Shown one piece after another: positions 14,720-24,092 of a DNA stretch of 34,499 nucleotides (the first letter of the stretch is position 1; every line of letters starts with the position of its first letter). The position numbers and the translations under genes were made by a program. Source of the DNA: an uncultured Archangium sp. (GTDB lineage: Bacteria; Myxococcota; Myxococcia; Myxococcales; Myxococcaceae); contig CAIVGN010000070.1 of NCBI GenBank assembly GCA_903905455.1, forward strand, positions 1-34,499. The letters run 5' to 3'. A model generated the notes under the pieces. That model saw only the letters and a list, made by a program, of their open reading frames with translations, was not told where the DNA came from and made no database searches.

Positions 14720-15721
14720 ATGACGACTGGGAAATGGACCGCGATCGCGGTGGCAGCGGTGCTGGCGTGTGCTTCGTTCGCCTTCGCCGAAGAAGTCGAG
14801 CGCCCGTGGGCGAAGGGCGTGCCCAAGGATCGCCAGGCCCGGGCCATCGCCTTGTTCCGTGAAGGGAACGCGGCGCTCAAGGAGTCGCTCTTCCCCAAGG
14901 CGGCCGGCACCTACAAGGAGGCCCTCGCCGTCTGGGACCACCCCGCGGTGCACTACAACCTCGCCCTGGCCCTGGTGAACCTCGACCAGCCGCTCGAGGT
15001 GCACGAGCACCTCACCGCGGCGCTCCGGTTCGGCCCGGCCCCACTGGACGATGACAAGTTCCAGCAGGCGCAGCGCTACCTCGCGCTGATCGAGCGGCAG
15101 CTGACCAAGGTCAAGGTGTCGTGCACCTACGCCGGCGCCCAGGTGCGCCTCGACGGCCGCCCCCTCTTCACCGCCCCCGGCTCGTGGGAAGGCCAGCTGC
15201 GCGCCGGCCCGCACACGTTGACCGCCTCGCAGGACGGCCTGTTGCCCGATGAGCGCTCGGTGGTGCTCGCCGGCGGCGACACCCAGACCTTCGAGCTGAA
15301 GGTCTTCAGGACCGAGGAACTGACCGAGTACCGCCGGGCCTTCAGCCCGGTCATTCCCTGGGTCGTCCTGGGCACGGGCGCGGCGTTGATCGGCACGGGC
15401 GTGGCCCTGCACCTCACGGCGAGCACGGGGTTCCAGGCCTATGACACCGGCATCAAGAACTGCGCGACCTCGAGCGAGAGCGGCGGGTGCTACCCGGTGC
15501 CGACGCTCCAGGAGACCCGCCTCGCGGCGCAGGCCCAGCAGACGGCAGCCATCGCGATGTACGCGGTCGGCGGCGCCGCCCTGGTCGGCAGCGCAGTGCT
15601 CTTCTACGTGGGCCGGCCCATCGCCTTCCAACGCACCCTGAACGTCGAGGCCCCGCGCGTGACGCTGGTGCCGATCATCACGCCCACCACCACCGGCGCC
15701 CTCGCGTCCTTCGAATTCTGA
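14720..15721 (+). CDS. TPR/PEGA-domain envelope protein with two membrane segments
   Basis: The ATG at 14720 lies 14 bases after the kinase gene, with AAGGA just upstream. The 333-residue product has a signal peptide ending AFA near residue 23 and TPR-like helices (about 38-125; ALFREGNAALKESLFPKAAG, then YNLALALVNL). A PEGA-like beta domain follows (about 131-196; AQVRLDGRPLF, then RAGPHTLTASQDG). Two hydrophobic segments (about 211-233 and 276-298) flank a loop with two Cys (248, 257), which could form a disulfide. It ends FEF. PEGA domains are surface-associated beta modules, and TPRs bind peptides or proteins. Likely a periplasmic or envelope scaffold working with the upstream kinase and the downstream lipoprotein; the link is positional. 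Confidence 0.82.
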   Translation: MTTGKWTAIAVAAVLACASFAFAEEVERPWAKGVPKDRQARAIALFREGNAALKESLFPKAAGTYKEALAVWDHPAVHYNLALALVNLDQPLEVHEHLTAALRFGPAPLDDDKFQQAQRYLALIERQLTKVKVSCTYAGAQVRLDGRPLFTAPGSWEGQLRAGPHTLTASQDGLLPDERSVVLAGGDTQTFELKVFRTEELTEYRRAFSPVIPWVVLGTGAALIGTGVALHLTASTGFQAYDTGIKNCATSSESGGCYPVPTLQETRLAAQAQQTAAIAMYAVGGAALVGSAVLFYVGRPIAFQRTLNVEAPRVTLVPIITPTTTGALASFEF

Positions 15722-15729
15722 GACACCCC

Positions 15730-18700
15730 ATGAACCTCCTTCGACGACTCAGCATCGCGAGCCTGATGCTCGCTGCCAGCGCGTGCTTCGACACCACCAC
15801 CGCCACCTGTTCCAGCGGCCTGGTGTGCCCGGTGGGCTCGGTGTGTTCGGCCAGCGGCGACCAGTGCATCTCGCCCACCTCGCTGTGCGGCAACGGCGTC
15901 AAGGACACCCTGCCCGACGGCGGCGCCGAGTACTGCGACGACGGCAACCAGCGAAACGGCGACGAGTGCCGGGCCGACTGCAAGGGCGCGGGCATCTGCG
16001 GCGACGGCAACGTCGACAGCGACGTGCGCGACGCGCAGGGCAAGCCCCTCGAGGAATGTGACGACGGCAACAAGACGCCTGGCGACGGGTGCAACGCGCT
16101 GTGCCACGCCGAGCGCTGCGGCAACGGCGAGCGGGACATGCTCAGCGACGGCAGCTTCGAGCAGTGTGACGACGGCAACAACACCCTGGGTGACGGGTGC
16201 CGCGGCAACTGCACGCTGGAGCTGTGCGGCGACGGCGAGCGCACCAACTTCAACGACGGCGGCATGGAGCAGTGCGACGACGGAAACACCGTCAGCGGCG
16301 ACGACTGCAGCGCGACCTGCAAGGCCGAGCGCTGCGGCAACAACGTGCGCGACGTGCTCCACGACGGCGGCCTCGAGGCCTGCGACGACGACGTGGCCAC
16401 CTGCAACAGCGCCTGCGTGATCGTCGCCTGTGGCAACACCTTCGTGGAGAACGCCGACGGGGGCCGCGGCCAGGGCCGGGAGATCTGCGACGACGGCAAC
16501 CTCGACGGTGGCGACGGCTGCCGCGCCGACTGCCTGGGCTTGGAGCGCTGCGGTGACGGGCTGCGCGACCCGGCGCTGCGCGATGGCGGCTTCGAGATCT
16601 GCGACGACGGGAACGTCGACGGTGGCGACGGCTGCAGCGCCGACTGCCGCTCCGACGAGAGCTGCGCCAACGGCCTGTTCGACCCCCTGGCCGGCGAACT
16701 GTGCGACGACCACAACCGGACCTCGGGCGACGGGTGCCGGGCCGATTGCAGGGGCCTCGAGCGCTGCGGGGACAACAACCGCGACGCGGTGCTGGTCGAC
16801 GGCGGCACCGAGCAGTGCGACGACGGCAACCTGACCGCGGGCGACGGCTGCAGCGCGCTGTGCCGCTTCGAAGTCTGCGGGAACAACTTCGTCGACCCCG
16901 GAGAGCTCTGCGACGACGGCAACCAGGCGTCGGGCGACGGCTGCCGCGCTGACTGCAAGGGCCTCGAGCGCTGCGGCGACAACAACCGCGACGCGGTGCT
17001 GCTGGACGGCGGCGCCGAGCAATGCGACGACTTCAACCTCACTGCGGGTGACGGCTGCAGCGCGCTGTGCCGCTTCGAGGTGTGCGGGAACACCGTCATC
17101 GACCCCGGAGAACTGTGCGACGACGGCAATCTCGCCCCCATCGGCCCCACCGACAACTGCTCGTCGGACTGCCGGTCGACGGGTACCTGCGGCAACTCCA
17201 CCGTGGAAATCGGCCTCAACGAGCAGTGTGACGAGGGTTCGACGAACAACGTGGACACCGGCTCGTGTACCTCGCAGTGCAAGCTCGCCCGCTGTGGCGA
17301 CGGACTGGTACACACCGGCGTCGAGCAGTGCGACACCTCGGGCGAGTCGGCGACCTGCAACGTCAACTGCACCTCGCGCCGCTGCGGCGACGGCATCATC
17401 AACGCGTCGGCCGGCGAACAGTGCGACGTGTCGGGCGCGGTGACGGGCACCGAGACGACCACGTGCGACACCGACTGCACCGCGGCGTTCTGCGGCGACA
17501 GCAAGGTGAACCTCGCGCGCAACGAGCAGTGCGACACCGGCGGAAACTCGGCGTCCTGCAACTCGAACTGCCGCCCCGCCCTGTGCGGCGACAGCGTCCT
17601 CAACACCGCGGCCGGCGAGCAGTGCGACACCGGCGGCAACACGACCTATTGCGACAACGACTGCTCCCCCGCGGCCTGCGGCGACGGCTTCTTCAACAAC
17701 GTGGCCGGCGAGCAGTGCGACGATGGCAACTCGCTCAACACCGACGACTGCGTGACCGGCTGCCGCGCGAACGTGTGCGGCGATGGCTTCCGCGATCAGC
17801 AGGGCCCGGTGACCGAGGCGTGCGACGACGGCAACACGGTCAGCGAGACGGCCTGCGCCTATGGCACGGTGTCCTGCACCACCTGCAACGCGAGCTGTAC
17901 CGGGGTGCTGACGCTGGCCGGCCCGCGCTGCGGCGACGGCACCACCAACGGGCCCGAGGTCTGCGACGACGGCAACACCGCCACCGAGACCGCCTGCGTG
18001 TACGGCACGGCGACCTGCACGGGCTGCACGGCCAACTGCGCCGCCCAGTTCTCGCTCACCGGCCCGCGCTGCGGTGACGGCACCCTCCAGGCGGCCAACG
18101 GCGAGACCTGCGACGACGGCAACACCGTCACCGAGGCCACCTGTCCCTACGGGCCGGGGACCTGCAGCGTGTGCAACGCCGACTGCCGCGGCAGCACCGC
18201 GCGCACCGGCCCGTCGTGCGGCGACGGCACGATCAACGGCACCGAGATCTGCGACGACGGCAACACCACCACCGAGACCGCGTGCCCCTACGGCACCGCG
18301 AACTGCACCGCCTGCACCGCGAACTGCGCGGCCCAGCTCTCCCTGACCGGGCCCCGCTGCGGCGACGGCATCTCCCAGGCGGCCAACGGCGAGACCTGCG
18401 ACGACGGCAACACCATCACCGAGGCCACCTGCCCCTACGGCACGGCGAGCTGCAGCGTGTGCAACGCCGACTGCCGCGGCAGCACCGCGCGCACCGGCCT
18501 GTTCTGCGGCGACGGCCTGGTCAACGGCACCGAGGCGTGTGACGACGGCAACACCGTCACCGAGGCCGCCTGCGCCTACGGCACCGCCTCGTGCACCGGC
18601 TGCGCGGCGAACTGCGGCGCCCAGTACTCGCTGACCGGCCCCACCTGCGGCGACGGCGTGACCAACGGCACCGGGGTGAACCTCGAGACCTGCGACGACG

Positions 18701-19641
18701 GGAACACCACCACCGAGACTGCGTGCCCCTACGGCCAGGCGACCTGCTCGTCGTGCCGCAACGACTGCAAGGCGACCTTGAGCCTCACCGGCGCCACCTG
18801 CGGGGACGGCACGACCAACGGCGCCGAGGTGTGCGACGACGGCAACACCACCACCGAGGCGAGCTGCACCTACGGCACGCCGACGTGCAACGTGTGCAAC
18901 GCCACCTGCACCGCGCAGCTGCCGCGGACCGGCGCGTTCTGCGGCGACGGCACGACCAACGGTACCGAGGTGTGCGACGACGGCAACGCCACCACCGAGG
19001 TGACGTGCCCCTACGGCCAGGCCTCGTGCACGCGCTGCAACGCGACCTGCGCGGCCCCGCTCACGCTGACCGGCGGCGTCTGCGGCGACGGCGTGGTCAA
19101 CGCGCCCAACGAGCAGTGTGACGACCGGAACACCCTGGCCTGCGGCACCTGCAACGCCAACTGCACGCTGGCCCAGACGCCGCTCGAGGCCCAGGGCACG
19201 ATCAAGACCGAGACGGAGAACAACACCAACGACGGGGAGACCTTCACCCTCAACGACGGGGTGAACCCGGCGACGGTGTTCTGCTTCAAGGCGACGGCGA
19301 TGTCGGCGTGCACCGGGGCGCAGGTGGTGGTCGACCTCACCGGCGCCGGCAACTCGACCACCAGTGAAGTGGGCGACCTGATCGTCGCGGCGGTCAACTC
19401 GGTGGGCGGCACGCTGGCGGTGACCGCGAGCAAGCGCACCACCCAGCCCTTCGTGCGCCTCACCAACGACGCCATCGGTGGCTTCGGCAACCAGGCGCTC
19501 AGCGAGACCGTGGTCGACGTCGACTTCGTGGTGACGGGCATGAGCGGCGGCGGCGCGGCCGACTGCGCCAACGGCACGGGCTGCATGACGGGCAACGACT
19601 GCCTCTCGGGCGTGTGCACCACGGGTGCCTGCGCTCCGTGA
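15730..19641 (+). CDS. Giant cysteine-rich repeat lipoprotein (DUF4215/Myxococcus CDDGN repeats)
   Basis: The ATG at 15730 lies eight bases after the PEGA gene; the product is 1303 residues. A short signal peptide ends in a lipobox-like ASAC (Cys19), so it is probably lipid-anchored. From residue 53 I count 28 tandem modules, each beginning CGDG or CGN and containing C-DDGN. Modules 1-18 mostly have four Cys (CGDG..., CDDGN, GC, C). Modules 19-27 have six, with an added T-E-T-A-C-P-Y-G...C..C insertion and a regular 47-51 residue period. A non-repeat domain of about 150 residues follows, with a Cys-rich tail ending TTGACAP. Such repeats are abundant in myxobacterial surface and secreted proteins; function is not established. 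The C-terminal 4 bases overlap the next gene (GTGA). Confidence 0.92.
15886..19179 (+). repeat. 28 tandem cysteine-rich coding repeats
   Basis: Module 1 starts at Cys53 (base 15886) and module 28 at base 19081. Early modules vary from about 30 to 41 residues and include a degenerate one (module 5, with CDDD replacing CDDGN). Modules 9-10 and 11-12 are near-identical pairs ([10 protein letters not shown]...CRFEV then CGN...[10 protein letters not shown]). From module 19 a second, six-Cys type takes over. The array looks like growth by unequal exchange of one- and two-module blocks. Confidence 0.9.
17929..18504 (+). repeat. Two tandem 288-base copies (modules 20-21 and 22-23)
   Basis: Bases 17929-18216 and 18217-18504 are each exactly 288 bases and encode the same alternating pair of modules: one ending in an L-T-G-P-R type linker, the next carrying [12 protein letters not shown] and RGSTARTG. 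Only scattered substitutions separate them (for example TTNGPEV versus TINGTEI). This is a recent two-module duplication. Confidence 0.85.
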
Positions 19642-20924
19642 GCGAGCCGGGCGTGGGCCGCAAAGGGTCGACGCTCTACCTCCAGGTGCTGGCCGGCGTG
19701 GGCCTGGGCGTCGCCCTGGGCGTGGCACGGCCCGAGTGGGCGGTGGCGCTCAAGCCGCTGGGTGAAGGCTTCGTGGGGCTGATCAAGATGTTGATCGGCC
19801 CCATCGTCTTCACCACCGTCACCGGCGGCATCGCGGGCATGGGCGATCTCAAGAAGGTGGGCCGGGTCGGGGCCAAGGCGCTGCTGTGGTTCGAGTTGAT
19901 GACCACCGCGGCCCTGGTGCTGGGCCTGGTGATCGTCACGGTGATCGGCCCGGGCCGGGGCATTCACGCGAAGGTCGAGGCGCTGGACACCGCGCAACTC
20001 GACAAGACGCTTTCGGCGCCCCACCCCCAGGGCGTGGTGGAGCACCTGGTGGCCTTGGTACCCCAGAGCTTCGTGGGCGCCTTCGTCGGGGGTGACGTGC
20101 TGCAGGTGCTGGTGCTGGCGGTGCTCTCGGGCATCGCGCTGGCGGGACTGGGAGAGCGCGGCAAGCCGGTCCTCGCGGGCCTCGATCAGATCGCCGGGCT
20201 GTTCTTCGCGATCATCGGGGTGGTGATGCGCCTGGCCCCGGTCGGCGCGTTCGGCGCCATGGCCTTCACCATCGGCAAGTACGGCGTGGGCGCGCTGGGG
20301 AACCTCCTGCTGCTGATCGTCAGCTTCTACGCCACGTCGCTGCTGTTCGTCTTCGGGGTGCTCGGCGCGGCGCTCAAGCTCGTGGGCCTGTCGATCTTCC
20401 GCCTGGTGCGGCACCTCAAGGAGGAGCTGGTGCTGGTGCTGGGCACCTCGTCGTCCGAGTCGGCCCTGCCCTCCCTGATGACCAAGCTCGAGGCCCTGGG
20501 CTGCAGCGGGCCGGTGGTGCGGCTGGTGGTGCCCACGGGCTACTCCTTCAACCTCGACGGCACCTGCATCTACCTGACGATGGCCAGCGTCTTCGTGGCC
20601 CAGGCGCTCGACGTGCCGCTGACGCTGGGTGAACAACTCTCGCTGCTGGCGGTGCTGTTGCTGACCTCCAAGGGGGCCGCCGGGGTGACGGGCAGCGGCT
20701 TCGTGACGCTGGCGGCGACGCTGCAGTCGGTGGGCACGGTGCCGGTGGCCGGGCTCTCGTTGCTGCTGGGCATCGACCGCTTCATGTCGGAGGCGCGCGC
20801 GCTGACCAACCTCGTGGGCAACGCGGTGGCGACGCTGGTGGTGGCCAGGTGGGAAGGCGCGCTCGACCTCGAAAAGGCCCGCGCCACGCTCGAGCCGAAG
20901 CCCGACGCGCTACGGGTGCGCTGA
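19638..20924 (+). CDS. dctA: DctA-type proton/sodium-coupled C4-dicarboxylate transporter
   Basis: The 428-residue multi-helix protein belongs to the dicarboxylate/amino acid:cation symporter (SDF) family. Signature segments are GTSSSESALPSLMTKLEALG (hairpin 1 and TM7), GYSFNLDGTCIYLTMA (the N-x-D-G-T cation-site motif) and SKGAAGVTGSGFVTLAATL (hairpin 2), the last in the form typical of DctA rather than glutamate carriers. It should import succinate, fumarate and malate across the inner membrane. The start GTG 19638 overlaps the lipoprotein stop by four bases (GTGA), and no ribosome-binding site is obvious, so translation is probably coupled. Its last 15 bases overlap the converging MinD-PilZ gene. 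Its place in an operon with envelope signalling proteins is unusual. Confidence 0.92.
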   Translation: MSEPGVGRKGSTLYLQVLAGVGLGVALGVARPEWAVALKPLGEGFVGLIKMLIGPIVFTTVTGGIAGMGDLKKVGRVGAKALLWFELMTTAALVLGLVIVTVIGPGRGIHAKVEALDTAQLDKTLSAPHPQGVVEHLVALVPQSFVGAFVGGDVLQVLVLAVLSGIALAGLGERGKPVLAGLDQIAGLFFAIIGVVMRLAPVGAFGAMAFTIGKYGVGALGNLLLLIVSFYATSLLFVFGVLGAALKLVGLSIFRLVRHLKEELVLVLGTSSSESALPSLMTKLEALGCSGPVVRLVVPTGYSFNLDGTCIYLTMASVFVAQALDVPLTLGEQLSLLAVLLLTSKGAAGVTGSGFVTLAATLQSVGTVPVAGLSLLLGIDRFMSEARALTNLVGNAVATLVVARWEGALDLEKARATLEPKPDALRVR

Positions 20925-22211
20925 AGCGTCCTCGGCGCGGCGCAGCGCCTCGTCGAGCACCCGGGGGAACGACTCGGTCGAGGCGAACTCCACCCCGCCC
21001 AGGGCCTTGCCGGAACGGACGCTGCGCACGAGCACCTCGAGGTGCGGCGCCCCCTCCAGGGTACTGAAGGAGATGGTCCACCTCGAGCCGCGCTCGAGGG
21101 GCTCGGCGGTGGACACCAGCGCCCCCGACCGGGACAGCTCGGTGACCTGCCCCTCACAGCTGAGGGTTCCATTGCTGAGCTTGACGTTGAGTTCGACGGG
21201 CACGCGGGCATGGCGCCGCTGGGTCGGCGAGAGGTCCACCGGCAGCGGCTCGGCGCGGGGGGGCGCGGCGGCGAGCTCGGCCAGCACCTCGGCCTCGGCG
21301 CGGGCCCGCCGCAGCGCCTTGACGTCGACGTCGAGCAGCACCTTCGCCGCGGCGTGGAGCGCGAGCATCGACGGGTCCCGGATCGGGTCGAGCAACCACG
21401 GCCGCCGGTTGTTGACCGACTCGTGCACCTTGCGGCTTGCGCGCAGCGAACCGATCACCGGCGCCTCGACCGAGAGAAAGTCGGAGATCATGCGCGAGAC
21501 CGAGTGCGCGACGGAGCTCTCGTGGGCCTCGACCACCTGGTTGCCCAGCAGCGAGACGCCCATGGAATCGAGGAGCGCGGAGATGGCCCGCGCGAAGCCC
21601 GGGCTCTCGGCCCGCACCCGGGTGAGCAGCCCGCGCATGCGCGCCGTGTCCTGGCCCTGCCCGTCACCCAGGAGCTCGAGCTGCTCGGGGCCCTGGGCGA
21701 GCTGGCGCAGCAGGCGGTGCACCGCGCCCTTCAGGAAGGCATAGGCGTTCTGCACCGAGGTGAGCTGCGGGGTGGTCACCACGAGCCGCAGATCGGCGAC
21801 GTTGAAGACGTCCAGGGCGTTGAAGCTGGTACCGGCGCCGACATCGACCACCACCACGTCGGCGTCGAGGGCCGACACGTGGCGCAGCAGCTTGAGCTTC
21901 TGGGTGTGGGCGAGGTTCGCGGCGCCGGGGTGCGCGGGGCTGCCGGCGATGAGCTCGAGGTTCGGGACGAGGGTCGGCAGCCGGGCCTCGGCCAGGGAGC
22001 AGATCTCCTGGTTGAAGAGGCTGTCGAGCGTGCGCGGGAGCCGGTCGACCCCCAACAGGGTGTGGAGGTTGGGGGCCCCGAGGTCGGCGTCGACCAGGAC
22101 CACCCGGCGGCCGCACTGGGCGAAGGCCACGGCGAGATTGGCCGAGACGAGGCTCTTGCCCACGCCCCCTTTGCCACCTCCCACCGAGATGATTCGCCCC
22201 GCCTCTTTCAT
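20910..22211 (-). CDS. MinD/ParA-family ATPase fused to a C-terminal PilZ domain
   Basis: From ATG 22211 the protein has 433 residues. The first ~290 are a MinD/FlhG-like deviant-Walker ATPase: GGGKGGVGKS (11-20), DADLGAPNLHTLLG (41-54) and VVVVDVGAG (119-127). A linker leads to a PilZ domain (about 331-425) with the RxxxR motif (RRHAR, 332-336) and T-E-L-S-R-S-G, where canonical domains have D/N-x-S-x-x-G. MinD/ParA proteins are ATP-switch dimers that position cell structures; FlhG sets flagellum placement. PilZ could tie this to c-di-GMP. It shares the Glu substitution with the small PilZ protein at 1817-2200. A GTG at 22277 would add 22 residues ahead of the conserved start and is less likely. 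Confidence 0.9.
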   Translation of the reverse strand: MKEAGRIISVGGGKGGVGKSLVSANLAVAFAQCGRRVVLVDADLGAPNLHTLLGVDRLPRTLDSLFNQEICSLAEARLPTLVPNLELIAGSPAHPGAANLAHTQKLKLLRHVSALDADVVVVDVGAGTSFNALDVFNVADLRLVVTTPQLTSVQNAYAFLKGAVHRLLRQLAQGPEQLELLGDGQGQDTARMRGLLTRVRAESPGFARAISALLDSMGVSLLGNQVVEAHESSVAHSVSRMISDFLSVEAPVIGSLRASRKVHESVNNRRPWLLDPIRDPSMLALHAAAKVLLDVDVKALRRARAEAEVLAELAAAPPRAEPLPVDLSPTQRRHARVPVELNVKLSNGTLSCEGQVTELSRSGALVSTAEPLERGSRWTISFSTLEGAPHLEVLVRSVRSGKALGGVEFASTESFPRVLDEALRRAEDASAHP

Positions 22212-22322
22212 GACGGGACCAGCTGATCGCAAGGTTCGCGCCCACGGGGCCTTCCGCCCGGACGGGAACGATTTCACCGGGTCATCCGTGGTCGCGAAGT
22301 CGTGGCGACCCCAGCCATCGGC

Positions 22323-24092
22323 TCAGTCCAGCCGGGGGCCGCGCTTCTTCTGCAACAGGGCGCTCGCTTCGAGCACATCGGTGTACGTGAGCTGCCCTTC
22401 GGCGCCCTGGCTCAGCTCGGCGGCATTCGCCTCGTCGGTGTCGAGGTGCATCTCGAGGCGGTACTTGGGGCTGACACGGACCAGCACGTCGCCGAACACG
22501 AGATCGCGCGGCCCGCCGACGATGGCCACCTCGACTTCGTCCCCGTCGACCACGTCGTAGGCGGTGGCGTCGTCGGGCCCCATGTGAATGTGCCGCTTGG
22601 CGCAGATGAGGCCCTCGGGGAGATGCACGGTGCCCTTCGGCCCCTCGAGGGTGATGGGCGCGCTGCCGGCCACCTTGCCCGAGTCGCGGATGGGCGCGTC
22701 CACGCCGAGGACGAACTCGTCGCTGCGGCTGATCTCCACCTGGCTGGCGGAGCGCAGGGGCCCCAGGAGCCGCACGCCGTTGATGCGGTTGCGCGGCCCG
22801 ATGACGTTCACCTTCTCTTCGCAGGCGTACTGGCCGGGCTGGCTGATGTCCTTGAGCCGGGTGGGCGTGGCGTCGGCGCCGAACAACTGCGCGAAGGTGG
22901 CCGCGTCGAGGTGGAGGTGCCGGGCGGAGATCGCGATGGGGATGGGCCGGGGGCTCTTCACCGCGGTCTTCTCGCGCACCAGGCCCACGGTCTGCCGGGC
23001 AATGGACAGCTCCTCGTCGGTCTTCACCACCATCGCCGCCACGCGCGAATGCGGCGCGGAGATGGTGGCCACGGGCTGGTCGCGGGTCACCTTCGCGTCG
23101 GCGTTGCGATCGTCGTCGAACACCAGGCCGAGGAAGTCGAAGCGCTGGAGCATGCGGTTGCGCATGGCCACGGCGTTCTCCCCGATGCCCCCGGTGAGCA
23201 CCACGGCGTCGAGGCCGCCCATCACCGCGGCGTAGGCCCCGATGTACTTGCGCACGCGGTGGGCGAAGACGGACACGGCGAGGCGGCAGCGATCATCGCC
23301 CTCGGCGGCGCGTTGCTCGATGTCGCGCAGATCGTTGCTCACCCCCGAGAGCCCGGCGAGGCCGGCGCGCGAGTTGAGCAGCACGTCGAGGGAGCTGGCG
23401 TCGAAGTCGCCGCTGCGCAGCAAGGTGAGGAGCACGCCGGGGTCGAGATCTCCACCGCGGGTGCCCATGACCAGGCCGTCGAGGGGCGTCAGGCCCATGC
23501 TGGTCTCGGTCGAGTGGCCGAACTCCACCGCGCAGGCGCTCGCGCCGTTACCGAGGTGCAGGGTGACGAGGCGCAGCTCGCTCAGGGGGCGCTGCAGGTG
23601 CTTGGCCGCGAGCTCCGCGACGTAGGCGTGGCTGGTGCCGTGGAAGCCGTAGCGGCGCAGGTCGTACTTTTTCGCCACCTCGAGATCGAGGGCGTAGGTG
23701 CGGGCGCGGCGCGGCATGCGGGCGTGGAACGCGGTGTCGAAGACCGCGACCTGGGGCAGCAAGGGGAACGCGGCCCGCGCGGCGCGGATGCCGGCGAGGT
23801 TGGCGGGATTGTGCAGGGGCGCGAGCGGAATGCAGGCCTCGATGCCCTTCTCGACGGCGTCGTCGACAAGGGTGGCGTCCACGAACTTTTCCCCGCCGTG
23901 CACCACGCGGTGGCCGATGGCGCCGAGGTTCAGCCCTTTCACCTCGGCGAAGACCTGGGCGAGCGCCTCGGCGTGGGTGACGGCCTGTCCGATGCGCTCG
24001 ACCTGGCCCTGGCGCAGCACCGCCGAGGTGGCGGTGTCGATGACCTGGAACTTCACGCTCGAGCTGCCCGAGTTGAGGACGAGGACGTTCAT
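22323..24092 (-). CDS. ackA: Acetate kinase fused to PduL-type phosphotransacylase
   Basis: One 589-residue frame contains two enzymes. Residues 1-372 are a complete acetate kinase (NSGSSSVKF at 7-15, HRVVHGG 61-67, FDTAFH 118-123, GFHGTSH 149-155, GTRGGDLDPG 210-219, GGIGENA 301-307). Residues about 383-559 are a PduL phosphotransacylase with its metal-binding motifs RHLHL (391-395), RHIHM (500-504) and MHLDTDEANA (548-557). PduL makes acyl-phosphate from acyl-CoA, and acetate kinase uses it to make ATP; in reverse, the fusion would activate acetate. A fusion channelling acetyl phosphate would follow. Normally these are separate genes; here they join without a stop or frameshift. ATG 24092 is chosen because it gives the family's MNVLVLNSGS start. 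A basic 30-residue tail follows. Confidence 0.95.
   Translation of the reverse strand: MNVLVLNSGSSSVKFQVIDTATSAVLRQGQVERIGQAVTHAEALAQVFAEVKGLNLGAIGHRVVHGGEKFVDATLVDDAVEKGIEACIPLAPLHNPANLAGIRAARAAFPLLPQVAVFDTAFHARMPRRARTYALDLEVAKKYDLRRYGFHGTSHAYVAELAAKHLQRPLSELRLVTLHLGNGASACAVEFGHSTETSMGLTPLDGLVMGTRGGDLDPGVLLTLLRSGDFDASSLDVLLNSRAGLAGLSGVSNDLRDIEQRAAEGDDRCRLAVSVFAHRVRKYIGAYAAVMGGLDAVVLTGGIGENAVAMRNRMLQRFDFLGLVFDDDRNADAKVTRDQPVATISAPHSRVAAMVVKTDEELSIARQTVGLVREKTAVKSPRPIPIAISARHLHLDAATFAQLFGADATPTRLKDISQPGQYACEEKVNVIGPRNRINGVRLLGPLRSASQVEISRSDEFVLGVDAPIRDSGKVAGSAPITLEGPKGTVHLPEGLICAKRHIHMGPDDATAYDVVDGDEVEVAIVGGPRDLVFGDVLVRVSPKYRLEMHLDTDEANAAELSQGAEGQLTYTDVLEASALLQKKRGPRLD

What the first reader, a model, noticed from the sequence alone, without database searches (positions are those of the whole stretch)
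22323..24092. Single-polypeptide acetate kinase-PduL fusion
Both catalytic units look complete with all major motifs. This physically joins acyl-CoA to acyl-phosphate to ATP conversion and could channel labile acetyl phosphate, which also phosphorylates response regulators. PduL, not Pta, is the partner.
Basis: partly seen in the sequence, partly recalled or inferred. Interest (0 to 1): 0.6.

Follow-up and report, generated by a model that had tools for sequence, protein, structure and literature searches.

The report
Acetate kinase joined to PduL
This is a real single protein that joins acetate kinase to a PduL-type phosphotransacylase, so one chain can probably turn acyl-CoA into ATP plus an organic acid; the fusion is old and widespread and was already reported in 2016, so it is a new example of a known enzyme architecture.

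Summary
Minus-strand 22326-24092 (stop 22323-22325) encodes one uninterrupted 589-residue protein: acetate kinase (PF00871, residues 1 to about 366), a short linker, then PduL (PF06130, 385-560). All 12 AckA active-site positions checked, and every PduL zinc-ligand and phosphate position checked, are present. AlphaFold2 (pLDDT 90) gives the AckA and PduL folds. It is not a sequencing join: the same order is intact in 14 other genomes of the family and in most of the 80 closest PduL relatives among 84,980 species, across about ten phyla. In trees of each half, fused forms separate from the sampled solo forms, consistent with one ancient fusion. It is not new: Erbilgin et al. 2016 (PMC4784909) reported EP-less PduL fused to Ack and proposed channelling. 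Channelling and substrate remain untested. The genome also has a separate ackA-pta pair and an ALDH-bearing microcompartment locus; the fusion is its only PF06130 protein but lies outside that locus. More unusual things lie in relatives: an N-terminal cyclic-nucleotide-binding domain in some fusions, and AckA halves with lost catalytic residues in one Myxococcota family.

The parts
22323..24092 (-). Gene for the 589-aa AckA-PduL fusion (ATG at 24092, stop at 22323-22325)
22995..24092 (-). Acetate kinase half, residues 1-366; positions equivalent to M. thermophila N7 S10 S12 K14 R91 D148 H180 H208 N211 R241 G331 E384 all present (window residues 7,10,12,14,62,119,151,179,182,212,304,360)
22941..22994 (-). 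End of the AckA C-terminal helix and linker, residues 367-384 (lower model confidence at about 371-385)
22413..22940 (-). PduL half, residues 385-560; zinc ligands H392 H394 E453 and H501 H503 H549, phosphate-binding R447 and S471, plus Q418 Q421 Q451 R539, match 5CUO/5CUP
22326..22412 (-). C-terminal tail, residues 561-589, low confidence in part (562-572, 586-589)

Best explanation
A bifunctional, cytosolic acyl-CoA-to-acid enzyme. The di-zinc PduL half interconverts acyl-CoA + phosphate and acyl-phosphate + CoA; the acetate kinase half interconverts acyl-phosphate + ADP and acid + ATP. Joined, they catalyse acyl-CoA + Pi + ADP <-> acid + CoA + ATP, making ATP by substrate-level phosphorylation or activating acetate or propionate in reverse. 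Shown: one chain, both complete active-site residue sets, both folds, conservation over many phyla. Inferred: that both halves are active, and that acetate (perhaps also propionate) is the substrate. Open: direction in vivo, and whether acyl-phosphate passes directly between sites.
For: Domains above curated cut-offs. AckA residues complete in the window and in nearly all fusions; PduL zinc ligands and Arg103 and Ser127 equivalents complete and invariant in 50 aligned fusions. Model pLDDT 90.2, pTM 0.83; AckA half like 2iir/1g99 (rmsd 1.9-2.2 A), PduL half like 5cuo (rmsd 1.0 A). Same order conserved: 15 of 15 intact copies in the family, most PF06130 hits in the phylum, about 72 of the 80 closest relatives in genome contigs. 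The AckA half begins at residue 1, where BMC PduLs carry an encapsulation peptide; published fused PduLs lack one.
Against: No biochemical data on any fused member were found in the papers searched. The genome has a separate AckA plus Pta, so the need for this enzyme is unclear. No conserved gene neighbourhood supports a specific pathway. In one family the AckA half has lost catalytic residues while the fusion persists, so fusion alone does not prove both activities.
Confidence: 0.85

Rival explanations
1. The join is a sequencing or assembly error between two neighbouring genes.
For: The assembly is a 251-contig draft; in G053 the gene is broken at contig ends.
Against: The same in-frame join in 14 other family genomes and dozens of others across phyla, and annotated as one CDS in complete plasmids of Polaromonas and Paracoccus.
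Confidence: 0.01
2. One half is a pseudoenzyme or mainly a regulatory or scaffolding part; only the other half works.
For: In five f11 Myxococcota genomes the AckA half has lost K14 and H180 (K to R, H to Q/F) while the PduL half looks intact.
Against: Every checked active-site position is present in both halves of the window protein and its close relatives.
Confidence: 0.06
3. It is the phosphotransacylase and kinase that serves, in trans, the genome's H. ochraceum-like bacterial microcompartment, whose function is unknown.
For: The genome has a shell locus with an aldehyde dehydrogenase (C189) and only one PF06130 protein, the fusion. Fusion and shell genes co-occur more than expected without correction for ancestry (12 of 16 fusion genomes in the family, 23 of 32 in the phylum; Fisher p 4e-5 and 2e-5).
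Against: The gene is not in the shell locus and has no N-terminal targeting extension; 16 of 28 shell-bearing genomes in the family lack any PF06130 and 4 fusion genomes lack shell genes. Shared ancestry alone could give the association. In phylum genomes with a solo PduL beside shell genes, the solo copy fills that role.
Confidence: 0.06
4. Its main task is to set the acetyl-phosphate pool (protein acetylation, response-regulator phosphorylation) rather than to carry carbon flux.
For: Acetyl phosphate is the shared intermediate (established knowledge), and a separate AckA-Pta pair could carry flux.
Against: No regulatory neighbour or domain in the window protein; a fused kinase would tend to consume acetyl phosphate.
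Confidence: 0.06

Closest known systems
Ack-PduL (PF00871-PF06130) fusion proteins noted in 2016, PLoS Biol e1002399 (PMC4784909)
   Same: PduL without encapsulation peptide fused to Ack; the same channelling idea was proposed there. Domain order Ack then PduL is what I find throughout.
   Different: No difference found for the window protein; the passage read gives no assay of the fused form.
Rhodopseudomonas palustris PduL (5CUO/5CUP)
   Same: Fold, all zinc ligands, Arg103, Ser127, Gln77.
   Different: No encapsulation peptide; N-terminus joined to AckA; not in a microcompartment locus.
Acetate kinases of Methanosarcina thermophila (1G99) and Thermotoga maritima (2IIR)
   Same: Fold and active-site residues.
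   Different: C-terminal PduL; about 28 residues shorter near residues 36-55, a shortness apparently shared with mycobacterial AckA, which aligns end to end at nearly equal length.
Separate ackA-pta pair of the same genome (C174)
   Same: Same net reaction expected.
   Different: Two proteins; the transacylase is Pta (PF01515), unrelated to PduL.

Membership tests
Acetate kinase (PF00871 / TIGR00016) | Family model above curated cut-off over the AckA half | tested here: met
   423 bits vs 22; 408.5 vs 293.4
Acetate kinase (PF00871 / TIGR00016) | Active-site residues N7, S10, S12, K14, R91, D148, H180, H208, N211, R241, G331, E384 | tested here: met
   all 12 present (numbering from the 1g99 alignment; the list of residues is from my own knowledge)
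Acetate kinase (PF00871 / TIGR00016) | Acetate kinase activity | not testable with these tools
   needs an assay
PduL phosphotransacylase (PF06130 / NF011652) | Family model above curated cut-off | tested here: met
   236 bits vs 25; 240.9 vs 209
PduL phosphotransacylase (PF06130 / NF011652) | Two-zinc ligands His48 His50 Glu109 / His157 His159 His204 and phosphate-binding Arg103, Ser127 | tested here: met
   H392 H394 E453 H501 H503 H549 R447 S471
Microcompartment-associated PduL | N-terminal encapsulation peptide on PduL | tested here: not met
   AckA occupies the N-terminus and starts at residue 1
Microcompartment-associated PduL | Gene lies in a shell-protein locus | tested here: not met
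   shell genes are on C189 and C18, fusion on C70
Pta-type phosphotransacetylase (PF01515) | PTA_PTB domain in the protein | tested here: not met
   only PF00871 and PF06130 found; Pta is elsewhere, on C174
Ack-PduL fusion described in 2016 | PF00871 and PF06130 in one chain, no encapsulation peptide | tested here: met
Ack-PduL fusion described in 2016 | Substrate channelling between halves | not testable with these tools
   proposed, not shown, in the paper

The most novel reading that the evidence does not exclude
The fused enzyme passes acyl-phosphate directly between its two sites and acts as the missing phosphotransacylase-plus-kinase of the H. ochraceum-like microcompartment, giving that organelle a function.
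Probability: 0.04. Interest if true: 0.6.

Novelty: new member of a known kind. Interest (0 to 1): 0.22.

Why it matters
It confirms that PduL, known mainly from microcompartments, has a widespread free-standing life as the C-terminal half of a two-step ATP-forming enzyme. NCBI annotation calls such proteins only 'acetate/propionate family kinase', so the PduL half is easily overlooked. The relatives with a cyclic-nucleotide-binding domain or an inactive-looking kinase half raise testable questions about control of acetyl phosphate.

Tried and rejected
Sequencing-error join: rejected by many independent copies. Operon context: no conserved neighbours among 80 relatives, nor in the same genus beyond the gene itself. 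Microcompartment membership: gene not in the shell locus, no targeting extension; co-occurrence with shell genes is real by raw count but was not corrected for ancestry. Papers on fused Ack/PTAC enzymes: only the 2016 remark was found.

Full report
What is there. The minus strand from 24092 to 22326 (stop 22323-22325) encodes one 589-residue protein without a break. Pfam finds Acetate_kinase up to residue 366, in two stretches, and PTAC (PduL) over 385-560; NCBIfam models for ackA and phosphate propanoyltransferase both pass their cut-offs. The large plus-strand ORF over the same stretch I take to be a shadow frame in GC-rich DNA. A longer GTG start (603 aa) is possible, but the ATG at 24092 matches the start of relatives.

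Both halves look able to work. By alignment with M. thermophila acetate kinase the positions N7, S10, S12, K14, R91, D148, H180, H208, N211, R241, G331 and E384 are all present (which positions matter is from my own knowledge of that enzyme). By alignment with the R. palustris PduL structure and the residues named in that paper, both zinc sites (H392, H394, E453; H501, H503, H549), the phosphate contacts (R447, S471), and Q418, Q421, Q451 and R539 are present. Q421 corresponds to Gln77, which that paper reports as typically Gln or Glu in PduLs of acetyl- or propionyl-CoA pathways and Tyr or Phe in the presumed lactyl-CoA form; so acetyl- or propionyl-CoA is the likelier substrate (inference). 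An AlphaFold2 model from 50 aligned fusions has mean pLDDT 90.2 and pTM 0.83, dropping at the linker around 371-385 and in the tail. Foldseek matches most of the chain to acetate kinases (2iir, 1g99) and a 175-column part to PduL (5cuo, rmsd 1.0 A).

It is not an artefact. A whole-genome search of 145 genomes of the order finds the full fusion in 14 other genomes of the same family at about 48-83% identity, plus one genome (G053) where the gene is broken at contig ends. In the phylum, most PF06130 hits sit in open frames of about 580 aa or more with AckA in front. In 84,980 species genomes the 80 closest PduL relatives are about 72 times the same AckA-PduL order. They come from Myxococcota, Pseudomonadota, Bacteroidota, Thermodesulfobacteriota, Planctomycetota, Verrucomicrobiota, Nitrospirota, Chloroflexota, Acidobacteriota and Bdellovibrionota, many as MAGs whose labels may be wrong. 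Complete plasmids of Polaromonas and Paracoccus carry it as one CDS, named only 'acetate/propionate family kinase'.

History. In a tree of PduL halves the fused forms stand apart from the solo forms; the apparent exception, L058, is the contig-edge piece of G053. In a tree of AckA halves the fused and sampled solo forms are separated by a single change. Sampling started from fused sequences and solo forms are few, so this is consistent with one old fusion rather than proof. Within the family there are two distinct fused lineages: the window's (with its genus and G087) and another (L008-L017) at about 50% identity, which carries Gly instead of Asn at the N211 position.

Setting. The gene lies alone: a divergent metallophosphatase upstream, and a MinD-like/PilZ gene downstream on the same strand 45 bases after the stop. 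No neighbour is conserved, even in the same genus. The genome also encodes a separate AckA and Pta side by side on contig C174. It has a microcompartment shell locus with an aldehyde dehydrogenase on C189 and two vertex-protein genes on C18. Satellite BMC-P genes, three BMC-P in all and an aldehyde dehydrogenase resemble the H. ochraceum type, whose function is called enigmatic in the 2021 catalogue; I did not test membership of that type. The fusion is the only PF06130 protein found in the genome. Shell genes and fusion co-occur more often than expected by raw count, but ancestry was not corrected for, and many genomes have one without the other. In phylum genomes with a solo PduL next to shell genes (for example G146, G148, G150, G164), that solo copy is the obvious compartment enzyme. 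I therefore regard the fusion as cytosolic.

Known or new. The 2016 PduL structure paper states that two PF06130 domains occur in multidomain proteins mostly annotated as Acks, that these lack encapsulation peptides, and that the fusion may facilitate channelling. That is this finding and this interpretation. I found no assay of a fused member in the open papers searched, so activity and channelling remain untested.

What is more unusual lies in relatives. At least five fusions carry a cyclic-nucleotide-binding domain by Pfam in front of AckA-PduL, and several others show the same N-terminal extension by eye. Five f11 genomes have AckA halves that lost K14 and H180 while PduL looks intact. Neither applies to the window protein.

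Noticed in passing
L111, L137, L139, L140, L124: AckA-PduL fusions with an N-terminal cyclic-nucleotide-binding domain (PF00027), in Thermodesulfobacteriota, Verrucomicrobiota, Rhodocyclaceae, Nitrospirota and Chloroflexota; L032, L036 and L047 look alike. Suggests second-messenger control; no paper holding the three search terms was found.
   Followed up: partly
L033, L035, L039, L040, L052 (f11 Myxococcota genomes): AckA half has lost K14 and H180 (and S12 or N211 in some), with PduL half apparently intact: a likely pseudokinase-PduL.
   Followed up: partly
G000:C189:31069-34099 (L149) and G000:C18:22095-22609 (L150): The window's genome has a microcompartment locus (BMC-H, BMC-P, aldehyde dehydrogenase, BMC-T) and a satellite pair of BMC-P genes; no PduL in it.
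   Followed up: partly
G000:C174:7404-10451 (L002, L147): Separate ackA and pta genes side by side in the same genome.
   Followed up: yes
L008-L017: A second fused lineage in the same family has HLGGG instead of HLGNG (N211 to G) in the AckA half.
   Followed up: no
L154 (Sinorhizobium meliloti plasmid pSmeRU11d) 5779-7576: The fused gene is annotated as two CDS, a long kinase plus a short PduL remnant: looks like a broken copy of the fusion.
   Followed up: no
L155 (Polaromonas naphthalenivorans plasmid pPNAP02) 1559-9591: The fusion lies between fabI and a DUF3141 gene, near ppk2 and a P-type ATPase: a possible functional context in Proteobacteria.
   Followed up: no
15487-19641 (+): Large ORF of many Cys-rich CDDGN...GDGC repeats, typical of myxobacterial surface or secreted proteins (from memory).
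   Followed up: no
20913-22277 (-): MinD/ParA-like ATPase with a C-terminal PilZ domain, 45 bases downstream of the fusion gene.
   Followed up: no
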